Source: Elusimicrobiota bacterium (lineage in GTDB: Bacteria; Elusimicrobiota; Elusimicrobia; 2-02-FULL-39-32). Taken from it: a DNA stretch of 57,110 bases. Positions 28,680 to 53,462 of the stretch are shown in pieces; position 1 is the stretch's first letter, and each line of letters begins with the position of its first letter. The notes beneath the pieces were generated by a model that saw nothing but the letters and a program-made list of their open reading frames with translations, made no database searches and was not told the DNA's origin. The stretch covers positions 1 through 57,110 of the forward strand of contig JACPBF010000023.1 in NCBI GenBank assembly GCA_016180425.1. Reading direction: 5' to 3'. Position numbers and translations under genes: made by a program.

Positions 28680-29132
28680 TTAAAGGCTAAGTGAATGGTT
28701 TGGGTCAAAAATAGAAATTTCGGGTTTAAGATCAGTTAGAGGAGTAGGATTTGGGTGGAGTTTAACATTTAAGATGTGAAAGGAAGATCGCGGCGGATAA
28801 AGATTGCCGGTGATGGCAGCCTGAATAATAGAATGTTTATCTATCTGGGTTAGAGAAGAACCTGAGCAAACTTGGACCTGAATATCATCGCTAAAATAAT
28901 TAAATAAAAAGCATGGTACTTGAAAACAATTTAATTCTTTTAAAGCGCTTAAGCGATGGTGGCCATTTAAAACTACAAAATTCCCTTTTTCTATCCACAG
29001 GGGCTGAAGAATTTTTTCGCACTGTAGAATCTCTTTCTTAATCTTAAGCACTCTTTCAGATTGAACCTCTTCATGAGGCTTAAAAAGTTCAATAGGTAGG
29101 AGACGGCTTTCAAGCTGACGATTCTGATTCAC
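28680..29132 (-). CDS. ParB/sulfiredoxin-fold protein, SerK/SbnI-like
   Basis: 150 residues. LLPIELFKPHE at about 10-21 and VVLNGHHRLSALKEL at about 53-67 match the ParB/Srx fold nucleotide-binding motif (DGHHR type), and NLYPPRSSFH at 110-119 resembles the FPPKTTRH motif of SerK/SbnI free-serine kinases. Family knowledge: these use ADP or ATP to phosphorylate L-serine. A ParB-like partition role is unlikely, since no helix-turn-helix follows. No clear operon partner: 85 bases separate it from the DUF1802 gene, and its own 5' side is a 242-bp gap holding an inverted repeat. Confidence 0.6.
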   Translation of the reverse strand: MNQNRQLESRLLPIELFKPHEEVQSERVLKIKKEILQCEKILQPLWIEKGNFVVLNGHHRLSALKELNCFQVPCFLFNYFSDDIQVQVCSGSSLTQIDKHSIIQAAITGNLYPPRSSFHILNVKLHPNPTPLTDLKPEISIFDPNHSLSL

Positions 29133-31525: not shown

Positions 31526-32068
31526 TTACATTTCTACTCCCAGTTGGGCGCGCACCCCGTTTTTAAAAGGATGTTTTATGACTTGAATGTCAGAAACCAT
31601 GTCCGCAATCTCAATAATTTCTTGAGGTGCGTTCCTGCCAGTGATAACCAGATGCAGATTTGGATCCCTATTTTTTATAACTGGAATGACTTCCTTAATA
31701 TCCAGCCAGCCATATTTCAAAGGATAGGTAAACTCATCTAAAATTATCATATCGTATTTTTTTGATTCAATCGCATCTTTACATTGATCCCAACAGAGTT
31801 TCGCCAAATTTTTATCCTGTTCTATGTTTTTAGATTCCCAGCTAAACCCATCTCCTAAAGGCCGAATTTCAATTCCTAATTTTTCTGCCAGTATATGTTC
31901 CCCATAAATATGTTTTTTGCTTTTAATGAACTGAAGCATGATGGTTTTAAAATCTCTGCCTAAAGCTCGGAACATAAGTCCTATGGCAGCTGTAGTTTTT
32001 CCTTTGCCATTGCCAGTATTAACAATCACTAACCCTTTTCTTGGGCCCGGTTTAATTTCTCTTTCCAT
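31526..32068 (-). CDS. cobO: Cob(I)yrinic acid a,c-diamide adenosyltransferase
   Basis: 180 residues. P-loop NTGNGKGKTTAA near residues 17-28, conserved LQFIK, the ILDEFTYPLKYGW segment and VITGRNAP mark the CobA/CobO/BtuR family. It transfers the 5'-deoxyadenosyl group from ATP to the corrinoid cobalt, making the upper ligand. Full length. Next gene cbiF follows immediately; upstream is a 95-base gap to cbiHL without a terminator. Confidence 0.95.
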   Translation of the reverse strand: MEREIKPGPRKGLVIVNTGNGKGKTTAAIGLMFRALGRDFKTIMLQFIKSKKHIYGEHILAEKLGIEIRPLGDGFSWESKNIEQDKNLAKLCWDQCKDAIESKKYDMIILDEFTYPLKYGWLDIKEVIPVIKNRDPNLHLVITGRNAPQEIIEIADMVSDIQVIKHPFKNGVRAQLGVEM

Positions 32069-32163: not shown

Positions 32164-33816
32164 TTAAGCTAACACCGATTCTTTAGCAGGGACTTCAATC
32201 TCATCTGGTTCCTCACTAGAAAGAATTTCTTTCTTTTTCTTAACTATTAAGAGGGACATATATCCTATTTTTTCTCTCTTAACTTTTCTTAAATCTTTTT
32301 CAATAAACTGCTCTGGGGTTCCAAGATAACTAAAGAGAGCGCCTTGATCTAATAAATTTTTTCTTTCTAACATTTCCAGGACTTTAGGAAGTTTGGATCC
32401 TACTTTAAAAAGAACAATGGTTTCATATTGATCCAAGGCATCTTCGATGTTACTTGCGTCTCTATTGACAGGGATAAGAGCAACGCGATCTTTTCCTTCA
32501 CTGATGGCAGAATCTATTAAACTTGCCGCGGATTGATAAGAGCTAATTCCAGGAATGGTTTCCCATGAGATTTGAGGGCATCTTGTTTTTAGAGTTTTTA
32601 ATAGATAAAAGTAAGTGCTATAAATCATTGGATCTCCTAAAGTTACAAAAACAGCATCCTCTCCTTTTGAAACTATTTTTGCCACACTGTCAGCGTTTTT
32701 ATTCCAATGAGTTTCTAGCTCCTGTTTATCCTTGGTCATAGGGAAAAAAAGCGTGTGAAATTCACTATTTTTCTGTAAGTAGGGTTCAATAATATTTAGA
32801 GCCATGCTTTCATCTGTGCCGCTAGAGGAAGGATAAAAAATGTGAGTGACCTTATTTAAAATTTTAGTTGCTTTAACTGTTAAAAGATCAGGATCTCCAG
32901 GACCAACTCCTATGCCATAAAGAGTTCCCCAGCTCCTGTTATTTCCAGTCTCATTAACTTTTTTATACGGGCTTTGTAAAAGGTCTGTATTTAAGGAAAT
33001 ACCAGGTCTTTGTCCCTCTTTTACTTTGCTAGATTCCAAATCATATTTATTTTTATAACCTCTGGGTGTGACAATAAAATCCAGATAACGAAAGCTATTC
33101 GTATTCCCAATAATAACTGTGGTAAGCATGCCAATTTCATGATTTAACATATTTTTTAGATCTGTAATAACAATCTGCTCCATGTCTCTTTTGCAGGATT
33201 TAACTAGCCCTACAGGGGTATCTGGAGAGCGATATTTAAGCAAGATTTTTTGAGTCTCTTGTATTTGTCTAGTTCTACGGCCGCTTTTTGGATTATAAAG
33301 CGCAACCACAAAATCCGCTTTTGCCGCAGCCTCAATTCGCGCTTCTATGATGTCCCAGGGGGTAAGAAGATCAGACAATGAAATTGAACAGAAATCATGC
33401 ATGAGAGGCGCTCCTAAAACAGAAGCGCAAGAGGTAAGAGCAGTCACCCCTGGAATAATTTCTACTTCTATCCCTTCTCCTGGTTTCCAATCCCTTTCTT
33501 TTAAGAGCTCAAGAACTGGGCCAGCCATCCCATAAATACCAATATCTCCGCTAGAAATTAAAGCCACTTTTTTCCCCTCATAAGCTATCTCTATGGAGCG
33601 CCTGGCTCTGGCAAGTTCTTCAGTCATTCCAGTATAAATCACCTGTTTTCCAACAATGAGTTCTTTAACAAGGTTAATATAGGTTCTATATCCAATAATA
33701 ATTTCTGCTTCCCCAATTGCTTCTTTAGCGCGAAAGGTTAAGTGGTCATGATCCCCTGGTCCAAAGCCAACCAACAATAATTTTCCTTTAGGTTTCAACT
33801 GCTCATTTTGTTCCAT
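32164..33816 (-). CDS. cbiHL: Fused CbiH (C17) and CbiL (C20) methyltransferases
   Basis: 550 residues containing two complete tetrapyrrole methylase domains. Residues about 12-260 are CbiH/CobJ-like: VGFGPGDHDHLT, ISSGDIGIYGMAG, PGVTALTSCASVLGAPLMHDFC and VALYNPKSGRRT. Residues about 295-530 are CbiL/CobI-like: GIGVGPGDPDLLT, FYPSS, VTLGDPMIYSTY and IPGISSYQSAAS. The linker is about 30 residues. The product methylates C-20 then ring-contracts and methylates C-17, consecutive steps, so the fusion can channel intermediates although the domains are in reverse order. GAGGAATTT lies before the ATG. Confidence 0.92.
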   Translation of the reverse strand: MEQNEQLKPKGKLLLVGFGPGDHDHLTFRAKEAIGEAEIIIGYRTYINLVKELIVGKQVIYTGMTEELARARRSIEIAYEGKKVALISSGDIGIYGMAGPVLELLKERDWKPGEGIEVEIIPGVTALTSCASVLGAPLMHDFCSISLSDLLTPWDIIEARIEAAAKADFVVALYNPKSGRRTRQIQETQKILLKYRSPDTPVGLVKSCKRDMEQIVITDLKNMLNHEIGMLTTVIIGNTNSFRYLDFIVTPRGYKNKYDLESSKVKEGQRPGISLNTDLLQSPYKKVNETGNNRSWGTLYGIGVGPGDPDLLTVKATKILNKVTHIFYPSSSGTDESMALNIIEPYLQKNSEFHTLFFPMTKDKQELETHWNKNADSVAKIVSKGEDAVFVTLGDPMIYSTYFYLLKTLKTRCPQISWETIPGISSYQSAASLIDSAISEGKDRVALIPVNRDASNIEDALDQYETIVLFKVGSKLPKVLEMLERKNLLDQGALFSYLGTPEQFIEKDLRKVKREKIGYMSLLIVKKKKEILSSEEPDEIEVPAKESVLA

Positions 33817-33884: not shown

Positions 33885-34268
33885 TCATTTTTCAATATTT
33901 GCGCTGATAAAAAATTTAATGAGCGACTCAAAACATTCTTTGCCCAATTCTTTGATTCTAATGGCATGTAATTTTAAGGCATCTTTTGTGATTCTTCCAA
34001 TATATTGTTGCTCATCATTTGTATTGATTTTATAGTTAGCTGTTTCTGTTACACAATCTAAAACTAATCCTTGTTTTTCAAGAAGTTTGGAAAATTCATC
34101 CATTTTTGAAGAATTCAAATCAAAGTGCTGGCTTGGGAAAAACGCAATTAAAGGGATTTCCATGGCCCCTTTATAAAATTGAACTCTTAAATCTTTTAGC
34201 TGAAAATTTTTTGAGGTTTTTGTCTCATCATAATTTTGAAGTTCTTGCCAAAGTTCTTCTATAGTCAT
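33885..34268 (-). CDS. Small conserved-context protein in the cobalamin operon, unknown
   Basis: 127 residues from the ATG at 34268, chosen because GGAG stands six bases before it; an ATG two codons earlier abuts the site. No signal peptide, membrane segment or known motif. It is a mixed alpha/beta-looking soluble protein with IPLIAFFPSQHFDLN and CVTETANYKIN. It lies between cbiG and cbiHL in the same direction, with 45 and 68 bases around it, so a role in corrin synthesis, cobalt handling or a fused accessory step is plausible. Not recognised. Confidence 0.6.
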   Translation of the reverse strand: MTIEELWQELQNYDETKTSKNFQLKDLRVQFYKGAMEIPLIAFFPSQHFDLNSSKMDEFSKLLEKQGLVLDCVTETANYKINTNDEQQYIGRITKDALKLHAIRIKELGKECFESLIKFFISANIEK

Positions 34269-34313
34269 AAGCATCTCCTAGAGGATTCAAAGTCTTGATT
34301 AGGGTCTCTATCT

Positions 34314-35408
34314 TTATTTATCTAAAATACGGGCAACAGCAAGAGTGGACATTTTACCTTTGGTTTTTTCTACCACGAGGGTGTCTGTTTTGGCTGTAAG
34401 CATGGCAGCGGGTTCAGAAACCCCTGGAATTTTCAAATATTTCATGACCATTTCCGAAGGATTGGGAAGAATATTTTTTAACTCTGCGAGCTCTTCTCTT
34501 GTGTAACAGACTAATTCCCAGTTATGTCTTTCACAGAAGGCAAGAAGCCCGGCCTCTCTATTTTTTAAATCCACAGTTGAGATATTTTTAATTGATTTTA
34601 CGCTCAAACCATGAAATTCAAAAGTTTTGTTCAGGAGCTCATCTAGTTCTTCCTGAAGAGTCCCCCGGTCGCATCCCATCCCAACCGTAAGGCTTTTAGG
34701 CCTGTAAATCACAGATTTATTAAGTAAATCCTGATATTTTTCAGGGATGATTTTATCCGTGATTAGCAAGGCAGCCTTACAATCAGAGGCTGTTAATTCA
34801 TCTAAGGAAGAATAAAATTTGAAATTTTTTGGGATGGGATTCTCTCTTTTCCACCAGTTTTTTTCTCCAGAATCTTGATAAATTCCCACAGCTTCTTCAT
34901 TCACCACACAAGCGCTTACCTTAGTAATGTTCTCATTTAGTTCTGTGGTCCAACCAAATTCCCTGCCTAAAATATCCACAGGAATGGTTTTTCCTACATC
35001 TGATGCAGTGGTAATAACTGGGGATGCTCCTAAGATTTTTGCAATCTCTTCTGTTAGTTCATTGGCTCCGCCAACGTGCCCAGAAAGCACGCTAATCGCA
35101 AAGTTCGCTTTGTCATCTATTACAATGATTGCTGGATCTGTATGTTTATCCTTCAGATAAGTTGCTATGGTTCTAACTACTGCGCCTAAAGAGACAATGT
35201 AGATCAGAGCATCAAAACCATTGAATATTTTACCTGTAAGCTCTTTGATTGGGGTTTCAAAAAATTGAACTTTTCCCGGAATGCCATCTTTTTTAAATTT
35301 AGCTGAGATAAACAGTTCACTATTTTTTAAGTTTAAATGAAGTTTCTCTGCAAGCAGAGCTCCATGTTTTGTAATCGCTATAACCGCAATTTTATCTTTT
35401 TCAATCAT
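34314..35408 (-). CDS. cbiG: Cobalt-precorrin-5A hydrolase CbiG
   Basis: 364 residues. N-terminal domain with AVIAITKHGALLAEKL; central part with IVSLGAVVRTIATYLKDKHTDPAIIVID and LSGHVGGANELTEEIA; C-terminal CobE-like domain with VGMGCDRGT and KTDTLVVEKTKGKMSTLAVAR. It opens the delta-lactone of cobalt-precorrin-5A with loss of acetaldehyde, a step specific to the anaerobic (early-cobalt) route. Between cbiET and the small unknown gene. Confidence 0.95.
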   Translation of the reverse strand: MIEKDKIAVIAITKHGALLAEKLHLNLKNSELFISAKFKKDGIPGKVQFFETPIKELTGKIFNGFDALIYIVSLGAVVRTIATYLKDKHTDPAIIVIDDKANFAISVLSGHVGGANELTEEIAKILGASPVITTASDVGKTIPVDILGREFGWTTELNENITKVSACVVNEEAVGIYQDSGEKNWWKRENPIPKNFKFYSSLDELTASDCKAALLITDKIIPEKYQDLLNKSVIYRPKSLTVGMGCDRGTLQEELDELLNKTFEFHGLSVKSIKNISTVDLKNREAGLLAFCERHNWELVCYTREELAELKNILPNPSEMVMKYLKIPGVSEPAAMLTAKTDTLVVEKTKGKMSTLAVARILDK

Positions 35409-36772: not shown

Positions 36773-37876
36773 TTATTTATTTGCAATTTTATATCTTCCT
36801 AAAATTTGACCGTCAAAATCAGTTAAGATACATTCTAAGATAATTTTTTCTCCAGCATTTTTATGGCAAACCTCACACACCTTACGCGCCACTCCATTCC
36901 ATAATTCTGTAATGCCATGTTGGGTTAGAATTTCATGAACATGGCGCGCTGTATTGGCCTTTAAGATTTCTTCAATTACAGGTTCTCTAGCTCCAATTTC
37001 TTTTGCCATTTGAGCAAGAAATGTCATATCCACTTGGCTGCCAGCTACATGAGTTTGCATCTTACCAGTAGCAATTTTAGACATTTTTCCCGGCATGCCG
37101 CAAAGAATTACTTTTTTTATACCTTTAACAGCAGCTTGCTTGGTAGAAAATCCTACAAAGTCTCCCATCTGCACATAACATTCATTAGGAAACCCTAAAA
37201 TTTTCATAGCATAAGTTTCGCTTCTTCCCCCTGTAGTTAAAACTACAGTGTCATGTCCTGCTGCAATAACAATATCAATTCCTTGCGCAATAGATGCTTT
37301 ATAAGCTGCTGTGGAAAAAGGAACTACAATGCCAGTGGTTCCTAGAATTGAAATCCCTTTTAAAATTCCTAAACGTTCATTTTGAGTTTCTTTTGCCATC
37401 TCTTCACCACGTGGAACAGAAATCAAAACTTTTAAACCCTGCTCATTTAAAAATGGGTCAGCTGCTTCCTTAACCATTTCAGTAATATTTTTTTTTGGAA
37501 CAGGGTTAATGGCTGGTCCCCCAACTTCTAAGCCAAGACCTTTTTTAGTAATAACTGCTACTCCCGGCCCCCGATCTAAAACTATCGCTCCTTTTTGGTT
37601 AATCCAAAGAACAGTTGCTGTTAGTTCAGCGCCATTGGTGCAGTCTGGATCATCTCCAGCGTCTTTAATAACAGAACAGGTCGCTTCATTTTTGTTGAAT
37701 TCACAGCGTTTAAGATTAAATTTTACCTGCTTACCCATTGGGATTGTAATTTCAATATCTTTTATATTTTTTTGATGAATTAAACAAAACGCGGCTGCTT
37801 TTGCCGCAGCAGCAGAACAAGCGCCAGTGGTCCAGCCAGTTCTTAAAATTTTTTTCTCTTCACTCTTTGGTTCCAT
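36773..37876 (-). CDS. cbiD: Cobalt-precorrin-5B C1-methyltransferase CbiD
   Basis: 367 residues from the ATG at 37876. The longer frame to 37942 would lie inside bluB and adds a segment unlike the family. RTGWTTGACSAAAAKAA is the family N-terminus; GPGVAVITKKGLG, ATTGG-like LTTGGRSETYA and CGMPGKMSKIA follow. CbiD is diagnostic of the anaerobic pathway. The start overlaps the bluB stop by 17 bases. Confidence 0.93.
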   Translation of the reverse strand: MEPKSEEKKILRTGWTTGACSAAAAKAAAFCLIHQKNIKDIEITIPMGKQVKFNLKRCEFNKNEATCSVIKDAGDDPDCTNGAELTATVLWINQKGAIVLDRGPGVAVITKKGLGLEVGGPAINPVPKKNITEMVKEAADPFLNEQGLKVLISVPRGEEMAKETQNERLGILKGISILGTTGIVVPFSTAAYKASIAQGIDIVIAAGHDTVVLTTGGRSETYAMKILGFPNECYVQMGDFVGFSTKQAAVKGIKKVILCGMPGKMSKIATGKMQTHVAGSQVDMTFLAQMAKEIGAREPVIEEILKANTARHVHEILTQHGITELWNGVARKVCEVCHKNAGEKIILECILTDFDGQILGRYKIANK

Positions 37877-38498
37877 TCCAGCTTTTTCCCCACTGATTTG
37901 AAAAAATAAGACTATCCAGATTTTCTCTTTTTTCCCAGCCAATTTCTTCCAGCAAAGGTTTGTCCCTAAACTCTAATGGATAGCCTACACAAAGATAAGC
38001 TACTGGCAGAATATGCTCTGGAATTTCAAGTAAAGTTTTTAAGTTGTTATTATCTAAAATGCTGACCCAGCCAACCCCCACGCCTTCAGATCGAGCAGCA
38101 AGCCATAAGTTTTGAATGGCGCAGCAAGTGCTGTAAATATCCACATCCAGAATTGAATTTCTGCCAATGACATGCGGCCCTTTGCGGGTTCTATCACAGG
38201 TAACACAAATATTAAAAGCTGAATCTAAAATCCCCTCCAGTTTAAGGGATTGATAAAGCTTTTTTCGTTCTCCTGAATAGTTGAGAGCAGCAAGATCATT
38301 TTGATGTTCAAAAATTTCTTTTATTTTTTTACGCAGGTCTAAATCTTCAATCAGGATAAAGTTCCATGGCTGCATAAAGCCCACAGAGCCTGCGTGATGC
38401 GCTGCTTTTAATATTCTTTTTATGACATCCTGTGGGATAGGATCAGATTTAAACTGTCTTATATCCCGGCGTTTAAATATAGCTTCGTAGAGTTCCAT
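37860..38498 (-). CDS. bluB: 5,6-dimethylbenzimidazole synthase BluB
   Basis: 212 residues from ATG 38498, eight bases after the cbiC stop. FKRRDIRQF near the N-terminus, GFMQPWNFILI, VTCDRTRKGPHVIG, AARSEGVGVGWVSI and VAYLCVGYPLEF are the BluB-specific patterns within the nitroreductase fold. Family knowledge: BluB breaks down reduced FMN with molecular oxygen to make the lower ligand DMB. That oxygen need contrasts with the early-cobalt corrin genes around it. A generic nitroreductase is less likely given the motifs and location. Confidence 0.88.
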   Translation of the reverse strand: MELYEAIFKRRDIRQFKSDPIPQDVIKRILKAAHHAGSVGFMQPWNFILIEDLDLRKKIKEIFEHQNDLAALNYSGERKKLYQSLKLEGILDSAFNICVTCDRTRKGPHVIGRNSILDVDIYSTCCAIQNLWLAARSEGVGVGWVSILDNNNLKTLLEIPEHILPVAYLCVGYPLEFRDKPLLEEIGWEKRENLDSLIFSNQWGKSWNGTKE

Positions 38499-38505
38499 AA
38501 TTTTT

Positions 38506-39162
38506 TTAAGCTGTTTGATAATTTTGCGCTGAAAGAAATAGGAGAGCATGGATTATAGCAACTGCTATGGCGCTTCCCCCTTTTCTTCCTTTAGAAACAA
38601 TATAGGGAGAATCTAAATTAAGTATTGCCTCCTTAGACTCTTTTGCAGATACAAACCCAACAGGCACTCCAATGATTAACCCTGGTTTTGCGTTTTCTTC
38701 CTTAATAAGCCTTGCGATTTCAAGCAGAGCTGTGGGCGCATTGCCAATAGCCACAATTGAACCATCTAGTATTTTTAGCTCATGAGCTTTTTTCATGGAC
38801 TCAATCGCTCTAGTAGAATTTTTCTCTTTTGCTTTTTTAATCACATCTTCATCAGAAATAAAGGAGCTGATTTTACATCCATACGCATTCAAACGATCTT
38901 CATTTAAGCCTGCCTGAATCATTTTAACATCCACAATAATAGAACAGCCATTCTTTAATGCGGTAATTCCAGATTTAATAGCATGAGGGTGAAACTCAAC
39001 TAAAGATTTATATTCAAAATCAGCAGTAGAGTGTATGACCCTGCGCACAACCTGCCACTCTTCAGGAGAAAATGAGTGTTGCCCAGCCTCCTGATCAATA
39101 ATGGCAAAACTGTTTTCTTCAATGTTTCTGCCTAAACCAGTCATTTGTCTCATGTCATTCAT
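38506..39162 (-). CDS. cbiC: Cobalt-precorrin-8 methylmutase CbiC
   Basis: 218 residues. The catalytic His sits in RRVIHSTADFEY, followed by IVDVKMIQAGL, the IGNAPTALLEI segment and GVPVGFVSAKESKEA, all CbiC/CobH hallmarks. It moves a methyl group from C-11 to C-12 to form cobyrinic acid. Strand order is FNR-like reductase, cbiC, bluB, cbiD. Confidence 0.96.
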   Translation of the reverse strand: MNDMRQMTGLGRNIEENSFAIIDQEAGQHSFSPEEWQVVRRVIHSTADFEYKSLVEFHPHAIKSGITALKNGCSIIVDVKMIQAGLNEDRLNAYGCKISSFISDEDVIKKAKEKNSTRAIESMKKAHELKILDGSIVAIGNAPTALLEIARLIKEENAKPGLIIGVPVGFVSAKESKEAILNLDSPYIVSKGRKGGSAIAVAIIHALLFLSAQNYQTA

Positions 39163-39192: not shown

Positions 39193-39945
39193 TTAAACCA
39201 ATATTTGGGTTGTAATTTTTTTAAATGGGTTATTAAAGAAACATTCAATTTTAATTTGTGAATCATTAAACCCTTGGGTTAAAAGTTCGTCCTTAAACGG
39301 GTAAAGTAGATTCCCATCTCCGGAAAGAAATATGAGCTCACCCATACGATCCTCAAGAAAAAGTTTAAATAGTTTTGTGGATTGGGTTAGTCTTTCCGCA
39401 TGATTGACCCCAGGGATGATCCTAATAAAAAAACCTGCGCAATCTGCGCCCAGTTTCTCTTCTAAAAAGGATGGAGGTAAAAAATAGTTTAAAGATTCAA
39501 CCAGCCAGAGCAAATAAAATTTTTTCACGCAGTTTTTAAAGTTTTGACTTTGGATAAGCCCTAAAGCAGCTGTAATGCCAGTATCTGTGGCAACCACCAT
39601 TGCTTTTTGAATTTTTGTGGATGGATCACAGAAAAATTGTCCCCAAGGGCCGCTAAAAGGAATGGTTGCTCCGGGAGCAGAGTCATGAAAATAATTTGAG
39701 GCTGGTCCGTCCAATATTTTTTTAACCGCTATCTGGAATTTGTCTTGATCATTGTCGCTGGAAAGTATGGAATAAGCGCGTTTGGCCAGCTTGCCTTGAG
39801 GCAGAGAAATATTAGTATTGACAATAACGTATTGGCCTCCTGTAAAATTTAATGTTTGCCCCCCCTCCAGTTTTAATTGAAGTAGTTTGGTTTCCTTATT
39901 TAAAGGCTTAGATTCTAGAAGTATCGCTTTTTTCTGTTGGGCCAA
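39193..39945 (-). CDS. FNR-like flavin reductase, candidate for the missing precorrin-6A reductase step
   Basis: 250 residues of the ferredoxin-NADP reductase fold: flavin-binding RAYS at 56-59, a beta-barrel N-half, and a nucleotide-binding half with VATDTGITAALGL at 118-130 in place of the usual GTGIAP. The C-terminal part (ESLNYFLPPSF, LFLSGDGNLLYPF-like) matches the fold. No iron-sulfur Cys cluster, so not a PyrK-type subunit. It lies between cbiX and cbiC. No CbiJ/CobK is present in the cluster, so it may reduce cobalt-precorrin-6A or serve as a cobalt(II) reductase for adenosylation. Both are inferences. Confidence 0.7.
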   Translation of the reverse strand: MAQQKKAILLESKPLNKETKLLQLKLEGGQTLNFTGGQYVIVNTNISLPQGKLAKRAYSILSSDNDQDKFQIAVKKILDGPASNYFHDSAPGATIPFSGPWGQFFCDPSTKIQKAMVVATDTGITAALGLIQSQNFKNCVKKFYLLWLVESLNYFLPPSFLEEKLGADCAGFFIRIIPGVNHAERLTQSTKLFKLFLEDRMGELIFLSGDGNLLYPFKDELLTQGFNDSQIKIECFFNNPFKKITTQILV

Positions 39946-39965: not shown

Positions 39966-40778
39966 TTAATAATCTTTAAGAGCCCCTAAGAAATTATTTA
40001 AGTTATTAGAAGTCTCCGCTACCTTTTCCTTTAACACTTGAAACATGAGGGGATCTGAACCAAAGTAAGGCGCAATTTCTATTCTACATTCTTTAAATAT
40101 TTTTTTAGCTTCTTCTGCCTGGTGTTCAATTCTTTTAACCAAAATTCCAGTGAATAGATAAAAAGGAAAGATAAGTAAATTTTTGCATGAATTGCTCAAT
40201 AATGCAGGCAAGGCTTCTGAATATTTTGGTTGGGCAAGAGCTATAAAACAGTGGTTTAAGGTACGGCAGGGTATTTCAAAACTAATATGATTTACCGCTT
40301 CCTTAAATTGTTCAATCGCTTGGCTATCGCTGGCTCCTCTTCCCACAACTAAAATATCCACATCCCTAGAATGGTTTTTAGGAAATTTATTTAAACTCTG
40401 CGTAATTTTTTCTTTAGCGCATTGGATTAGATTTTTATGAGGCCAAAGAGAGTTTCCGTAAAGGATATTAATTTCAGGAAAACTTTTTTTAAACTCTTCC
40501 AAAATCTCAGGGATCTCAGTTTTTACATGGCCAGCGCTAAAAAGCAAGTAGGGAATTACCGTAATTTGGTTTATCCCATCTTTTGCAAGGATGCGCAGCG
40601 CTTGAGGAATGGTGGGCGAGCTTAGTTCTAAAAATGCGCTGGTAACGATCACTTCCTTTCCAAAAGTGTCTATATTTTTATTTTGAAACTCGCTGGCAAA
40701 ATCTATAAATTCTTTTACTGCAATAGGATCTCTTGAGCCATGTCCAATCAAAAGAATCGCTTTTTTCAATGTTTGCAT
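39966..40778 (-). CDS. cbiX: Sirohydrochlorin cobaltochelatase CbiX, long form
   Basis: 270 residues, two homologous halves. The first half has LLIGHGSRDP with the catalytic His and the second His in SAGHVKTEIPE. The second half has LVVGRGASDSQA and FPFYLFTGILVKRIEHQ. It inserts cobalt into sirohydrochlorin, starting the anaerobic branch. Located first among the corrin-ring genes of this unit, 54 bases after the S41 protease gene. Confidence 0.92.
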   Translation of the reverse strand: MQTLKKAILLIGHGSRDPIAVKEFIDFASEFQNKNIDTFGKEVIVTSAFLELSSPTIPQALRILAKDGINQITVIPYLLFSAGHVKTEIPEILEEFKKSFPEINILYGNSLWPHKNLIQCAKEKITQSLNKFPKNHSRDVDILVVGRGASDSQAIEQFKEAVNHISFEIPCRTLNHCFIALAQPKYSEALPALLSNSCKNLLIFPFYLFTGILVKRIEHQAEEAKKIFKECRIEIAPYFGSDPLMFQVLKEKVAETSNNLNNFLGALKDY

Positions 40779-40832: not shown

Positions 40833-41681
40833 TCAAGGTTCTTTAGGATGAAGAAGCGAAATAGCTTTTTCCAATTGTTGTTCCTCTCCATGGATTGAAA
40901 AGTCTGGCTCAATCCTTTCTGGATCATCACTATTTTCAACTGTTTTCCAAGCGCCAACTGTCAGTGATAACCACATTGACTCTACAGGAATCATTTTTTG
41001 AATGGTTCTTTTACCTTGTGTGGGGAGACCAACAATCTTGGCTTGATTCTGTTCTCTGAGAGAAGAAGCAAGAAATTCAGCAGAAGATGCGGTATGGCTG
41101 TCCACAAGAATGATCATGGGTATTTTTATGGGGCTGTCATTTTCTGACTTTTTTATAATCTTTTTTTCCCTTTCCTGAATGATCGCCGTTGTTTCCCCAA
41201 AAGACACAAAACGCTCTGTTATTTTTAAGCAAGAATCAAAATCCCCTCCCTCATTTCCTCTTAAATCTAAGATCAGTTTAGAAATTCCATCCTTAGTCAA
41301 TTTTCCATAACTCTTTTCAAATTCCTTAACAGTGGATTTAGAGAAATAAGAGATCTGGATAGTTCCAATTTTTTCAGCAATAATTTTATAATCTTTAATA
41401 CTTTTTTTATTCTTAAAACCCCTGACAAAATCTGACTTCTTTGCATTGTTTTGAATTAAAGAAGAGTCTTTGTCCAAAACCTGTAATATTTCAGACAAAG
41501 AACTCTTCTCAAATTCTTTGATGTTAACTGGTTTAAAATAATATTTTTGAATAGCTTCGACCACTGCTTTTTTTAAAGCAGGGTTTTCACTAATGGCTAA
41601 TTTTTCATCTCCTAGGAGGTACTTTTGATTGACAAATAGAGTAAGAGCTAGAAGAGTTGTAACAAAAAGTTTTAGTGGCAA
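40833..41681 (-). CDS. S41-family C-terminal processing peptidase, secreted
   Basis: 282 residues if read from TTG at 41681; the same frame opens to a TTG at 41717 inside the previous gene, and no ATG is available. The chosen start gives MPLKLFVTTLLALTLFV, a good signal peptide. S41 motifs are LDLRGNEGGDF, the Ser nucleophile region SHTASSAEFLAS and the catalytic Lys in LPTQGKRTIQ. A PDZ domain is not evident, so it is shorter than CtpA. It overlaps the end of the beta-propeller gene. In a B12-controlled unit it might process the porin or propeller, which is speculation. Confidence 0.75.
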   Translation of the reverse strand: MPLKLFVTTLLALTLFVNQKYLLGDEKLAISENPALKKAVVEAIQKYYFKPVNIKEFEKSSLSEILQVLDKDSSLIQNNAKKSDFVRGFKNKKSIKDYKIIAEKIGTIQISYFSKSTVKEFEKSYGKLTKDGISKLILDLRGNEGGDFDSCLKITERFVSFGETTAIIQEREKKIIKKSENDSPIKIPMIILVDSHTASSAEFLASSLREQNQAKIVGLPTQGKRTIQKMIPVESMWLSLTVGAWKTVENSDDPERIEPDFSIHGEEQQLEKAISLLHPKEP

Positions 41682-42874
41682 TAAGAAGCCATGTCTCCCT
41701 GAATGGTTGTTCCCCAAGGAGTGGTCCCTACGTTTGCAATTTTTGTTACCTTATCAGTTTCAGCATCTATGGAATAGATGGAATTATCTACGGAAGATGC
41801 CACATAGATTGTTTTACCATCCACAGCTGTTGAAGCGGTTTCTAAACGGAGACCTTTACCAATTAAGATTGTTCCTTTCTCTTTCATTTTTTGAAGATCA
41901 TATACATGGAGAAGCGCTTCGCTTTCAGTGGTAGCTAAGGCATAGGCTTTTTTTCCACCCAACACAAAATTAATTCCTGTAATAGTTCCACCTGCCGGGA
42001 ATGTAGATTTCAATTTATGTTTTTGAGCGTCAATCACAGATACAGTCTCATCCCCATTGTTTGGCACAAGCATCCATTTTCCATCTGGGGAGTTATAAGT
42101 TCTCCATGGATCTTCTCCTACTGGAATGGTTTTTACAATGCTATCTTTTTCAGTATCTATCACTGCCACAAGATTTGAATCTCCATCCGCAGCATAGCCA
42201 TACCGTCCATTTGAAGTTAAAGTCACATTGGCAATTCCTTTAATTTCCGATAAGTAGCGCGAAGGGTTTTTTAGAGCGACTTGATAGACATCCCCGATGC
42301 TTAATTGTTTGGAAATTTCATGTTTTGCGGTGTCAATGACATCTATGCGATGGGCTCCAAAGTTTGCGATATAGGCTTTGGAGGCATCTTGATTGAATGT
42401 GACCCCATGCGGTTCATAAAAACCATTAATTCTTTTTATCTCTTTATTGAGAGCAAGGTCAAGAACTGAGATTGAGCCATCCTCGAAGTTGGCGACATAG
42501 GCAAAATATTCAGGATAATCTTTGTTTTTTTCAATGGCAAAATGCTCTGGTGATCTTCCCACAGGCAATTTAGCTTCTACAATTCCTTTTTCCACATCCA
42601 CAATCGCCACCTCATTTCTGCCTGTCATGGTTACAAGAAGTTTTTGGCCGGTTTTCCCGGTCCAGGCCATGGTCATGTGTGAAGCGCTTAAAAGATCCAA
42701 ATTAATTTTTTTAGAGATCTGCATGCTCTTTAAATCAATTACCGTCACATAATCTGAATCTTGGTTTGCCACAAACAAACGATTGCCTTCCTCTGGCTGA
42801 GATTGCATCTGGGCATTGGACATGCTGGTTAAACAAAGAACCAGCCCGCTGATGATTAGTTTTATTTTGTTCAT
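41672..42874 (-). CDS. YncE-like periplasmic beta-propeller protein
   Basis: 400 residues. Signal peptide 1-21 (LIISGLVLCLTSMSNA). The mature part consists of about seven 40-45-residue YVTN-type blades with repeated NxDSDYVTVIDLKS, YVANFEDGSISVLDL and YIANFGAHRIDVID patterns. Related domains bind metals, cofactors or partner proteins. AAAAGGAGGAAT before the ATG is a strong ribosome-binding site. It lies between the B12-controlled porin and the S41 protease, so it may assist corrinoid or cobalt acquisition. The substrate is not known. Confidence 0.8.
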   Translation of the reverse strand: MNKIKLIISGLVLCLTSMSNAQMQSQPEEGNRLFVANQDSDYVTVIDLKSMQISKKINLDLLSASHMTMAWTGKTGQKLLVTMTGRNEVAIVDVEKGIVEAKLPVGRSPEHFAIEKNKDYPEYFAYVANFEDGSISVLDLALNKEIKRINGFYEPHGVTFNQDASKAYIANFGAHRIDVIDTAKHEISKQLSIGDVYQVALKNPSRYLSEIKGIANVTLTSNGRYGYAADGDSNLVAVIDTEKDSIVKTIPVGEDPWRTYNSPDGKWMLVPNNGDETVSVIDAQKHKLKSTFPAGGTITGINFVLGGKKAYALATTESEALLHVYDLQKMKEKGTILIGKGLRLETASTAVDGKTIYVASSVDNSIYSIDAETDKVTKIANVGTTPWGTTIQGDMASYCH

Positions 42875-42923
42875 TAATTCCTCCTTTTATTTTTTATCAT
42901 GTTACTTTAGATTCACTGTCTAG

Positions 42924-44291
42924 TTAAAATGTGATCTGTGTTCTTAATCCTAATATTAAAACATTGCTTTGCGCTGCTCCTTGGGACGATCCCGCTGAAT
43001 GAAAAATAAATTGACTTACTGGAGAGAGATTAAGATGGTCGCTTAAAAAAATTGAGTAATAACATTCTCCAATATTTTCAGTTTCAGCTGTAAGACCAGT
43101 TCCAATAGGAGTTAAAAAGTGACTATAGCCAATCCCAAATTTATCTCGTCTTCTTGCAGGAATAAAATCATGTACCATCATCCCTGCGCTCCAAAAATGA
43201 GGATCTCGCACCGGCTCTTTTTTTATAGTTCTACCCACTCTTCCAAAAAGAATAATTTTTGATCCTATCTCTTGATCTATGCTGGTCCCTAGGGAATAGT
43301 CATCACGATTTTCTCCAGCAGTTCTACCATTTCTTGCAGCCCAAAGCCGCACATTCCCCAAAGCCCCATGCAAAAGTCTAAATCTTAGAGCAATTTCAGA
43401 AATAGAAAAAGGCTCTTCTGTTACATTCACTCCATTCCCGTCAGCGCTTTGGGCGCCTGCGCTTAAGGCAAACCCTTTATGAGAATCATAAAGAAGAGCC
43501 ATTCCTGGTCCGTTTGGAGCATTGCCTAAAACCAGATTGTTTACCAATCCTCCAGTTATAAATTGGCTGGTCTCATCATTGGCAACTCTGTTACGATCAA
43601 AATAATTAGTTAGGTCTATTTTACCAATTATAAACTGAATTTTTTGACTCATGGCTGTTTTTTGTACCCATGCTTCTCTTAAACGCACTTGATCTGTCTG
43701 GGTGACTTGAGGCAAAGAAGTGGTATCGTTGTTGAGTATAGATTGGTTTGGGATAGAAGAATCTGGTCCCTGCCCGCCTTGAGATTCTATGTCAATAAAA
43801 AATAAAGTGTTAATGAATGGTCTGCTAAGAAGATAAACATCTATTGAACCTTGAGCAAAAGTTTGTTTTTTAGTTGAGCTTTCAAGACTGTCTGTAACAT
43901 GTTGGACTATTCCAGTGCCAGACATGGCCACATTCACCCTTTTTTGAAACTCTTCGTCTAACATGCTGCTTATTTTATCTCCAACCGCCTCCCTCCTATC
44001 TAGTTTCACTTTGATTAAAGCAAACCTTTTTTTTACAGTTAGGCGATCCTCTGGACAGATAAAATGTTCTGGAGGCAAGGCATAGGTATGTCCTTGAGGA
44101 CAAACATATTCAGTCACCTTTTTTATCTCCTCTGCTTTTTCAGGCGGGAACGTATATTTTTCTAATTCTTGCACTTTGTTTTTTAAGGATTGGAATTCCT
44201 CATCTGAAACAGCGCTAAGATTCTGAATTCCACAACAGAAACTAGAAACCACTAGACATAGGGCTGCAACAACATTAATTTTTTTCATCAT
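42924..44291 (-). CDS. Outer-membrane porin under cobalamin riboswitch control
   Basis: 455 residues. Signal peptide about 1-27. A short coiled-coil segment (SLKNKVQELEKY) is followed by a CPQGHTYALPPEHFICPED element with two CP pairs and a His that could hold a metal ion. The rest is a beta barrel ending with aromatic Phe (LRTQITF), with OprB-like features such as LREAWVQKT, FIIGKIDLTNYFDRN and FGIGYSH. First gene downstream of the riboswitch at 44338-44567. Given that control, uptake of corrinoid or cobalt is the reasonable inference. It is not a TonB-dependent BtuB-type receptor: no plug domain is seen. Confidence 0.75.
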   Translation of the reverse strand: MMKKINVVAALCLVVSSFCCGIQNLSAVSDEEFQSLKNKVQELEKYTFPPEKAEEIKKVTEYVCPQGHTYALPPEHFICPEDRLTVKKRFALIKVKLDRREAVGDKISSMLDEEFQKRVNVAMSGTGIVQHVTDSLESSTKKQTFAQGSIDVYLLSRPFINTLFFIDIESQGGQGPDSSIPNQSILNNDTTSLPQVTQTDQVRLREAWVQKTAMSQKIQFIIGKIDLTNYFDRNRVANDETSQFITGGLVNNLVLGNAPNGPGMALLYDSHKGFALSAGAQSADGNGVNVTEEPFSISEIALRFRLLHGALGNVRLWAARNGRTAGENRDDYSLGTSIDQEIGSKIILFGRVGRTIKKEPVRDPHFWSAGMMVHDFIPARRRDKFGIGYSHFLTPIGTGLTAETENIGECYYSIFLSDHLNLSPVSQFIFHSAGSSQGAAQSNVLILGLRTQITF

Positions 44292-53150: not shown

Positions 53151-53239
53151 GCACCCAACTCTTTGGTCCTTAAGGTTTTAAATAGGAATAAAACCTCTTG
53201 AAGACTTCTTTCTTGAAAACGAAGAAGTTTCAAAAACAT

Positions 53240-53426
53240 CTACTGGTCAGTCTTCTGGCTCTCCTGCACTTTTTTAGCGCCTTCCCAGTTTAAAATTCTA
53301 AACTCGTGGCTTATTGCTAAAAAGCTTGCCTATTCTTATTTATCAAGGATAGGACAGGATCACAGCGGCGGGACCGCTTCCGATTTGCACGGAATTCCTT
53401 TATTGAGTTCTTTCGAACACCAATAG
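53240..53426 (-). promoter_or_regulatory. Cobalamin riboswitch 2
   Basis: On the minus strand the P1 stem pairs CTATTGGT (53426-53419) with ACCAGTAG (53247-53240), one G-U pair. Inside, in order: AAAGGAATTCCGTGCAAATC, GCGGTCCCGCCGCTGTGATCC, AAGCCACGAG, ACTGGGAAGGCGC and GAGAGCCAGAAGACTGACC. These are the expected conserved blocks. It lies between proS and cobC and controls the eight-gene late-cobalamin unit through the attenuator at 53109-53150. Confidence 0.93.
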
Positions 53427-53462
53427 AAAAAAACTTTACTCTTTTTATAAAGAACTGGACTT

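What the first reader, a model, noticed from the sequence alone, without database searches (positions are those of the whole stretch)
39193..39945. FNR-like flavoprotein may fill the missing precorrin-6A reductase slot
CbiX, L, H, F, G, D, E, T, C, A, P, B, CobO, U, T, S, C, CobD and BluB are all present, but no CbiJ/CobK is seen. An FNR-fold reductase is placed between cbiX and cbiC. Several bacteria lack cbiJ, and a non-orthologous reductase is needed.
Basis: inference. Interest (0 to 1): 0.65.

Follow-up and report, generated by a model that had tools for sequence, protein, structure and literature searches.

The report
Flavin reductase in vitamin B12 operon
A flavin-containing reductase sits at one fixed place inside the vitamin B12 ring-building operon of unrelated bacteria that lack the textbook enzyme for one reduction step, so it may do that step, but many other bacteria lack both proteins and no experiment has tested it.

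Summary
A 250-aa FNR-fold flavoprotein gene (39193-39945, minus strand) lies between cbiX and cbiC in a complete cobalt-early B12 cluster of an Elusimicrobiota MAG, and no CbiJ/CobK exists in the 98%-complete genome. New here: the protein belongs to a sharply separate FNR subfamily with its own motifs. In 20 of 20 loci found (Elusimicrobiota, Binatota-like 'Deltaproteobacteria', a Planctomycetales MAG, Acidobacteriales, Omnitrophota, Leptospira interrogans) it sits same-strand between cbiX(-DUF3209) and cbiD/cbiC. None of the 19 genomes has CbiJ. It is the only extra oxidoreductase shared by all these operons. So a ring-stage reductase role is well supported. The specific CbiJ role is the leading guess but unproven. 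CbiJ is rare anyway: 75 of 78 CbiD+ genomes in a comparison set lack it without having this FNR, so its absence proves little. Two Elusimicrobiota relatives keep cbi genes with neither protein, and Thermus pTT27 lacks both. FNR presence also tracks BluB (16/19 versus 2/22). Rivals: cobalt or corrinoid reductase, electron donor for ring contraction, flavin supplier for BluB.

The parts
39193..39945 (-). FNR-fold flavoprotein reductase of a B12-operon-specific subfamily (250 aa, TTG start)
   Evidence: PF00970 60 bits; subfamily profile separates >=370 bits from <=76 bits for generic FNRs in the same genomes; own clade, support 1.0; pLDDT 90.5 and FNR fold
39966..40778 (-). cbiX, short form without the C-terminal 2Fe-2S domain
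   Evidence: PF01903 149 bits and no 2Fe-2S match
38506..39162 (-). cbiC
   Evidence: PF02570 264 bits
37860..38549 (-). bluB
   Evidence: TIGR02476 261 bits, cut-off 150
36773..37942 (-). cbiD (makes Co-precorrin-6A, the substrate of the CbiJ step)
   Evidence: TIGR00312 416 bits
35431..36699 (-). cbiE-cbiT fusion (acts just after the CbiJ step)
   Evidence: TIGR02467 and TIGR02469 above cut-off
34314..35408 (-). cbiG
   Evidence: CbiG_N, mid and C domains
32164..33816 (-). cbiH-cbiL fusion
   Evidence: TIGR01466 and TIGR01467 above cut-off
31526..32068 (-). cobO adenosyltransferase
   Evidence: TIGR00708 188 bits
30746..31525 (-). cbiF
   Evidence: TIGR01465 325 bits
44636..46093 (-). cbiA
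   Evidence: TIGR00379 517 bits
44326..44580 (-). cobalamin riboswitch upstream of the porin/propeller/cbiX run
   Evidence: RF00174 39.4 bits, gathering 31.5
53228..53439 (-). cobalamin riboswitch upstream of cobC-cobU-cobT
   Evidence: RF00174 70.1 bits

Best explanation
The gene encodes a FAD-containing, FNR-fold reductase dedicated to the corrin-ring stage of the cobalt-early (anaerobic-type) B12 pathway. Its most likely job is the one ring reduction left without an enzyme here: Co-precorrin-6A to Co-precorrin-6B (saturation of C18=C19), done elsewhere by the unrelated CbiJ/CobK. Proposed steps: NAD(P)H reduces the bound FAD, and the flavin passes a hydride, or two electrons directly or through a small Fe-S carrier, to the ring made by CbiD, before CbiT/CbiE act. 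Shown: fold, FAD-domain match, ring-operon position, lack of CbiJ. Inferred: the substrate, the donor (the pyridine-nucleotide motifs are altered) and the exact step.
For: No CbiJ in this genome or in any of the 19 genomes with this FNR. In 20 of 20 loci it lies between cbiX(-DUF3209) and cbiD/cbiC on the same strand. The Leptospira and Binatota-like operons look self-contained; of their extra genes only the FNR has an oxidoreductase fold and only it is shared with the window, whose genome has no DUF3209. Separate subfamily with conserved RAYS, GPWG, TDTGITA, GDG and ExFFN motifs. By literature, CbiJ reduces the ring with NADH right after CbiD and before CbiT (PMC7242693).
Against: 75 of 78 other CbiD+ genomes tested lack CbiJ and also lack this FNR, so some other answer to the missing step exists. 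G195 (92% complete) and G005 (80%) in the same phylum keep cbi genes with neither; Thermus pTT27 shows neither in its cluster. L. santarosai and L. alstoni strains keep the cluster but lost the gene (PMC4758666; authors suspect lab decay). The FNR tracks BluB (16/19 versus 2/22). The operon may have spread as a block, so 20 loci are few independent events.
Confidence: 0.38

Rival explanations
1. It keeps cobalt in corrinoid intermediates reduced: either Co(III) to Co(II) in ring intermediates in oxygen-exposed cells, or Co(II) to Co(I) for the adenosyltransferase, like CobR, PduS or the Fpr/flavodoxin pair elsewhere.
For: FNR-positive genomes mostly carry BluB, an oxygen-using enzyme, while the FNR-free comparison set mostly does not. 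In L039 and L041 a PduO-type adenosyltransferase (PF01923) lies directly between the FNR and cbiD. The nearest solved folds include Fpr and siderophore-interacting ferric reductases.
Against: In the other loci the adenosyltransferase is not next to it. CobO is needed with or without CbiJ, yet this FNR was never seen with CbiJ (weak, given the low base rate). The position is among ring genes that act well before adenosylation.
Confidence: 0.25
2. It supplies electrons for another ring reduction, the reductive contraction of cobalt-factor III to cobalt-precorrin-4 at the CbiH step, possibly through the 2Fe-2S domain fused to CbiX in most of these operons.
For: Adjacent to cbiX; the long CbiX carries a thioredoxin-like 2Fe-2S domain (PF01257). 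From my own knowledge, B. megaterium CbiH60 is an Fe-S enzyme that uses electrons at this step.
Against: In the window the CbiX is short and has no 2Fe-2S domain, yet the FNR is kept. Thermus has the long CbiX and DUF3209 but no FNR in the cluster.
Confidence: 0.15
3. It reduces FMN for BluB, which consumes reduced FMN and oxygen to make dimethylbenzimidazole.
For: True BluB (over cut-off) in 16 of 19 FNR-positive versus 2 of 22 FNR-free CbiD+ genomes (Fisher p about 1e-6, clade-confounded). G005 lost both. In the window only cbiC separates the two genes.
Against: BluB is on another contig in G002, G022, G026, G029, G030, G032 and G034, while the FNR always stays with the ring genes. G021, G025 and G028 have the FNR without BluB over cut-off. 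BluB occurs without this FNR in Thermus, G195 and G552.
Confidence: 0.12

Closest known systems
CbiJ/CobK (cobalt-)precorrin-6A reductase, PF02571
   Same: Would catalyse the same step in the same operon setting
   Different: No sequence match; CbiJ/CobK uses NAD(P)H directly and is not an FNR fold, whereas this is a FAD-domain flavoprotein
Bacterial ferredoxin/flavodoxin-NADP reductases (Fpr), flavohemoprotein and dioxygenase reductase modules (BenC, T4moF)
   Same: Two-domain FAD plus nucleotide fold
   Different: 15-20% identity; separate clade; altered nucleotide loop (TDTGITA for G[TS]G[IL]AP, GDG for CG) and an added ExFFNxP tail; tied to B12 operons
Leptospira LB_163 'flavodoxin reductase' of the cobI/III cluster (PMC4758666)
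   Same: Same subfamily and same operon position
   Different: 34% identical over the matched region; comes with DUF3209 and a long CbiX; listed in the paper without an assigned reaction in the passages I read
CobR, PduS and Fpr/FldA corrinoid-reducing systems
   Same: Flavoproteins or reductases that feed electrons to corrinoids
   Different: From my own knowledge only: CobR and PduS are other folds; Fpr is general-purpose and not in the cbi operon

Membership tests
FNR (ferredoxin-NADP reductase-like) superfamily | FAD-binding beta-barrel with the RxYS motif | tested here: met
   PF00970 above cut-off; RAYS invariant in 20 sequences; FNR fold in PDB search
FNR (ferredoxin-NADP reductase-like) superfamily | Canonical nucleotide-binding motifs G[TS]G[IL][AT]P and CG | tested here: not met
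   Replaced by TDTGITA and [SA]GDG; no PF00175 match. The fold of this domain is kept, so NAD(P)H use is inferred
CbiJ/CobK | Match to the CbiJ/CobK family PF02571 | tested here: not met
   Only PF00970 matched; genome search with PF02571 found nothing
CbiJ/CobK | Reduces (cobalt-)precorrin-6A at C18=C19 | not testable with these tools
   Needs enzyme assay or complementation
Non-orthologous CbiJ replacement | Genomes carrying it lack CbiJ | tested here: met
   0 of 19 genomes have PF02571
Non-orthologous CbiJ replacement | Presence predicts CbiJ absence better than the background does | tested here: inconclusive
   0/19 versus 3/78 CbiJ-positive, Fisher p = 1
Non-orthologous CbiJ replacement | Every CbiD+ CbiJ- relative carries it | tested here: not met
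   G005, G195 and about 73 deltaproteobacterial-type genomes lack both
BluB partner flavin reductase | Always found with, and linked to, bluB | tested here: not met
   3 of 19 without BluB over cut-off (drafts); unlinked in 7 others

The most novel reading that the evidence does not exclude
A new flavin-dependent, FNR-fold family of cobalt-precorrin-6A reductases, unrelated to CbiJ/CobK, used by Elusimicrobiota, Binatota-like bacteria, Omnitrophota, some Acidobacteriota and pathogenic Leptospira. The lack of both proteins in most CbiD+ deltaproteobacterial-type genomes would mean at least one further unknown reductase.
Probability: 0.35. Interest if true: 0.65.

Novelty: new variant of a known kind. 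Interest (0 to 1): 0.46.

Why it matters
CbiJ is often missing from genomes that otherwise encode the whole cobalt-early B12 pathway; it is reported to have no homolog in Geobacter genomes apart from one plasmid (PMC3543383). Naming one conserved candidate, with a defined sequence signature and a fixed operon place, turns an annotation gap into a direct complementation test. The survey also shows that this candidate cannot explain most CbiJ-less genomes, so a further reductase is still to be found.

Tried and rejected
DUF3209 (PF11483) as the missing reductase: it joins the FNR in 15 of 19 genomes and occurs in Thermus, but the window genome and three family members lack it. The 129-aa gene 33885-34274: no informative family, not shared outside the family, and unlike the 138-aa gene of Binatota-type loci, which is fused to CobJ in Leptospira. 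Using CbiJ absence as positive evidence: rejected because of the background. Cluster neighbours of 18 comparison genomes, 16 of them without CbiJ or FNR, showed no obvious common reductase (blastp only). Literature: no paper found that assigns this FNR to the CbiJ step; subscription journals were not searchable. A phylum scan of Acidobacteriota had one CbiD+ genome, too few for a test.

Full report
Observation. The ORF at 39193-39945 (minus strand, 250 aa) is a FAD-binding FNR-type protein, modelled with high confidence and folded like Fpr, FNR and oxygenase reductases. PF02571 (CbiJ/CobK) finds nothing in the 2.6-Mb, 98% complete genome or in 20 relatives, though it rings in control genomes. 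The window is an Elusimicrobiota MAG, judged from the 92%-identical sister record.

The subfamily. Relatives found in a scan of 84,980 genomes (the scan uses two peptide patterns, so it is not exhaustive) and in plasmid records form a separate clade from generic FNRs, with support 1.0. In a survey of 80 genomes the profile gives 370-386 bits for true members and at most 76 bits for other FNRs. Hallmarks are FxGGQY, KRAYS, GPWG, ATD(T)GITA, GDG and ExFFN; the usual G[TS]G[IL]AP and CG nucleotide motifs are changed, so normal NAD(P)H chemistry is an inference.

Context. In 20 of 20 loci the gene lies on the same strand between cbiX (or cbiX-DUF3209) and cbiD/cbiC (in L031 the cbiX side is cut off and only DUF3209 is seen): Elusimicrobiota, MAGs labelled Deltaproteobacteria, Proteobacteria or Binataceae, a Planctomycetales MAG, Acidobacteriales, Omnitrophota and Leptospira interrogans. 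Leptospira has cbiX-DUF3209-FNR-cbiD-cbiC-cbiET-cobI-cbiG-cobJ, and the same gene is listed as 'flavodoxin reductase' LB_163 in PMC4758666. DUF3209 accompanies the FNR in all carriers outside the window's family plus G002, but is absent from the genomes of G000, G001, G003 and G004. The FNR is thus the shared element.

Test of the CbiJ idea. None of 19 FNR-carrying genomes has CbiJ. However, of 198 genomes in the phylum of G027, 89 have CbiD; among the 78 tested, 3 have CbiJ and 2 have the FNR, with no overlap. With G005 and G195 added, the FNR-free CbiD+ set is 78 genomes, 3 with CbiJ. So most CbiD+ genomes there have neither, and exclusivity is not better than background (Fisher p = 1). This agrees with the report that Geobacter lacks CbiJ (PMC3543383). 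In the window's own phylum G195 and G005 also keep cbi genes with neither protein. Thermus pTT27 has cbiD, cbiC, cbiET, CbiX-2Fe-2S and DUF3209, but no CbiJ on the record and no FNR annotated in the cluster.

Test of the BluB idea. BluB over cut-off is present in 16 of 19 FNR carriers and 2 of 22 CbiD+ non-carriers (p about 1e-6). The comparison set was chosen by me and is clade-confounded, and may simply mark oxygen-using lineages. BluB is unlinked in seven carriers, missing in three drafts, and present without the FNR in Thermus and G195.

Reading. A dedicated ring-stage reductase is well supported (about 0.8). Which step is open: the CbiJ step about 0.38, cobalt or corrinoid reduction about 0.25 (a PduO-type adenosyltransferase sits between FNR and cbiD in two loci), ring contraction about 0.15, BluB about 0.12. 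The 20 loci share gene order and may reflect few independent transfers. Loss of the gene in two Leptospira species is ambiguous, because the authors attribute such losses to culture with B12.

Prior knowledge. I have an unverified memory that an FNR-like gene was discussed for the Leptospira B12 locus in early comparative genomics; I could not check it, so priority for the bare idea is uncertain.

Noticed in passing
window 28680-29132 (-): 150-aa protein near cbiF, matching free serine kinase structures (5x0b, E 2e-6) and 49% conserved next to cbiF in G195. It may replace the L-threonine kinase PduX in this pathway.
   Followed up: partly
window 33885-34274 (-): 129-aa protein between cbiG and cbiHL, conserved in the family (52-93%) without a known domain.
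   Followed up: partly
L033:15535-15951 and L045:19569-21062: A 138-aa unknown protein after cbiH in Binatota-type and Acidobacteriales operons is fused to the C-terminus of CobJ in Leptospira, hinting at a role with CbiH.
   Followed up: partly
L049:9823-10542 and L030:7754-8155: ChuX/HutX-like haem-protein domains inside cbi clusters, in G195 fused to a 2Fe-2S domain.
   Followed up: no
window 41672-44291 (-): An OprB-type porin and a beta-propeller protein stand behind a cobalamin riboswitch and before cbiX; possibly cobalt or corrinoid uptake.
   Followed up: no
comparison genomes G378-G571: 75 of 78 CbiD+ genomes without this FNR lack CbiJ; in the two CbiJ+ clusters examined, G516 and G552, the cbiE ORF is short, without the fused CbiT domain.
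   Followed up: partly
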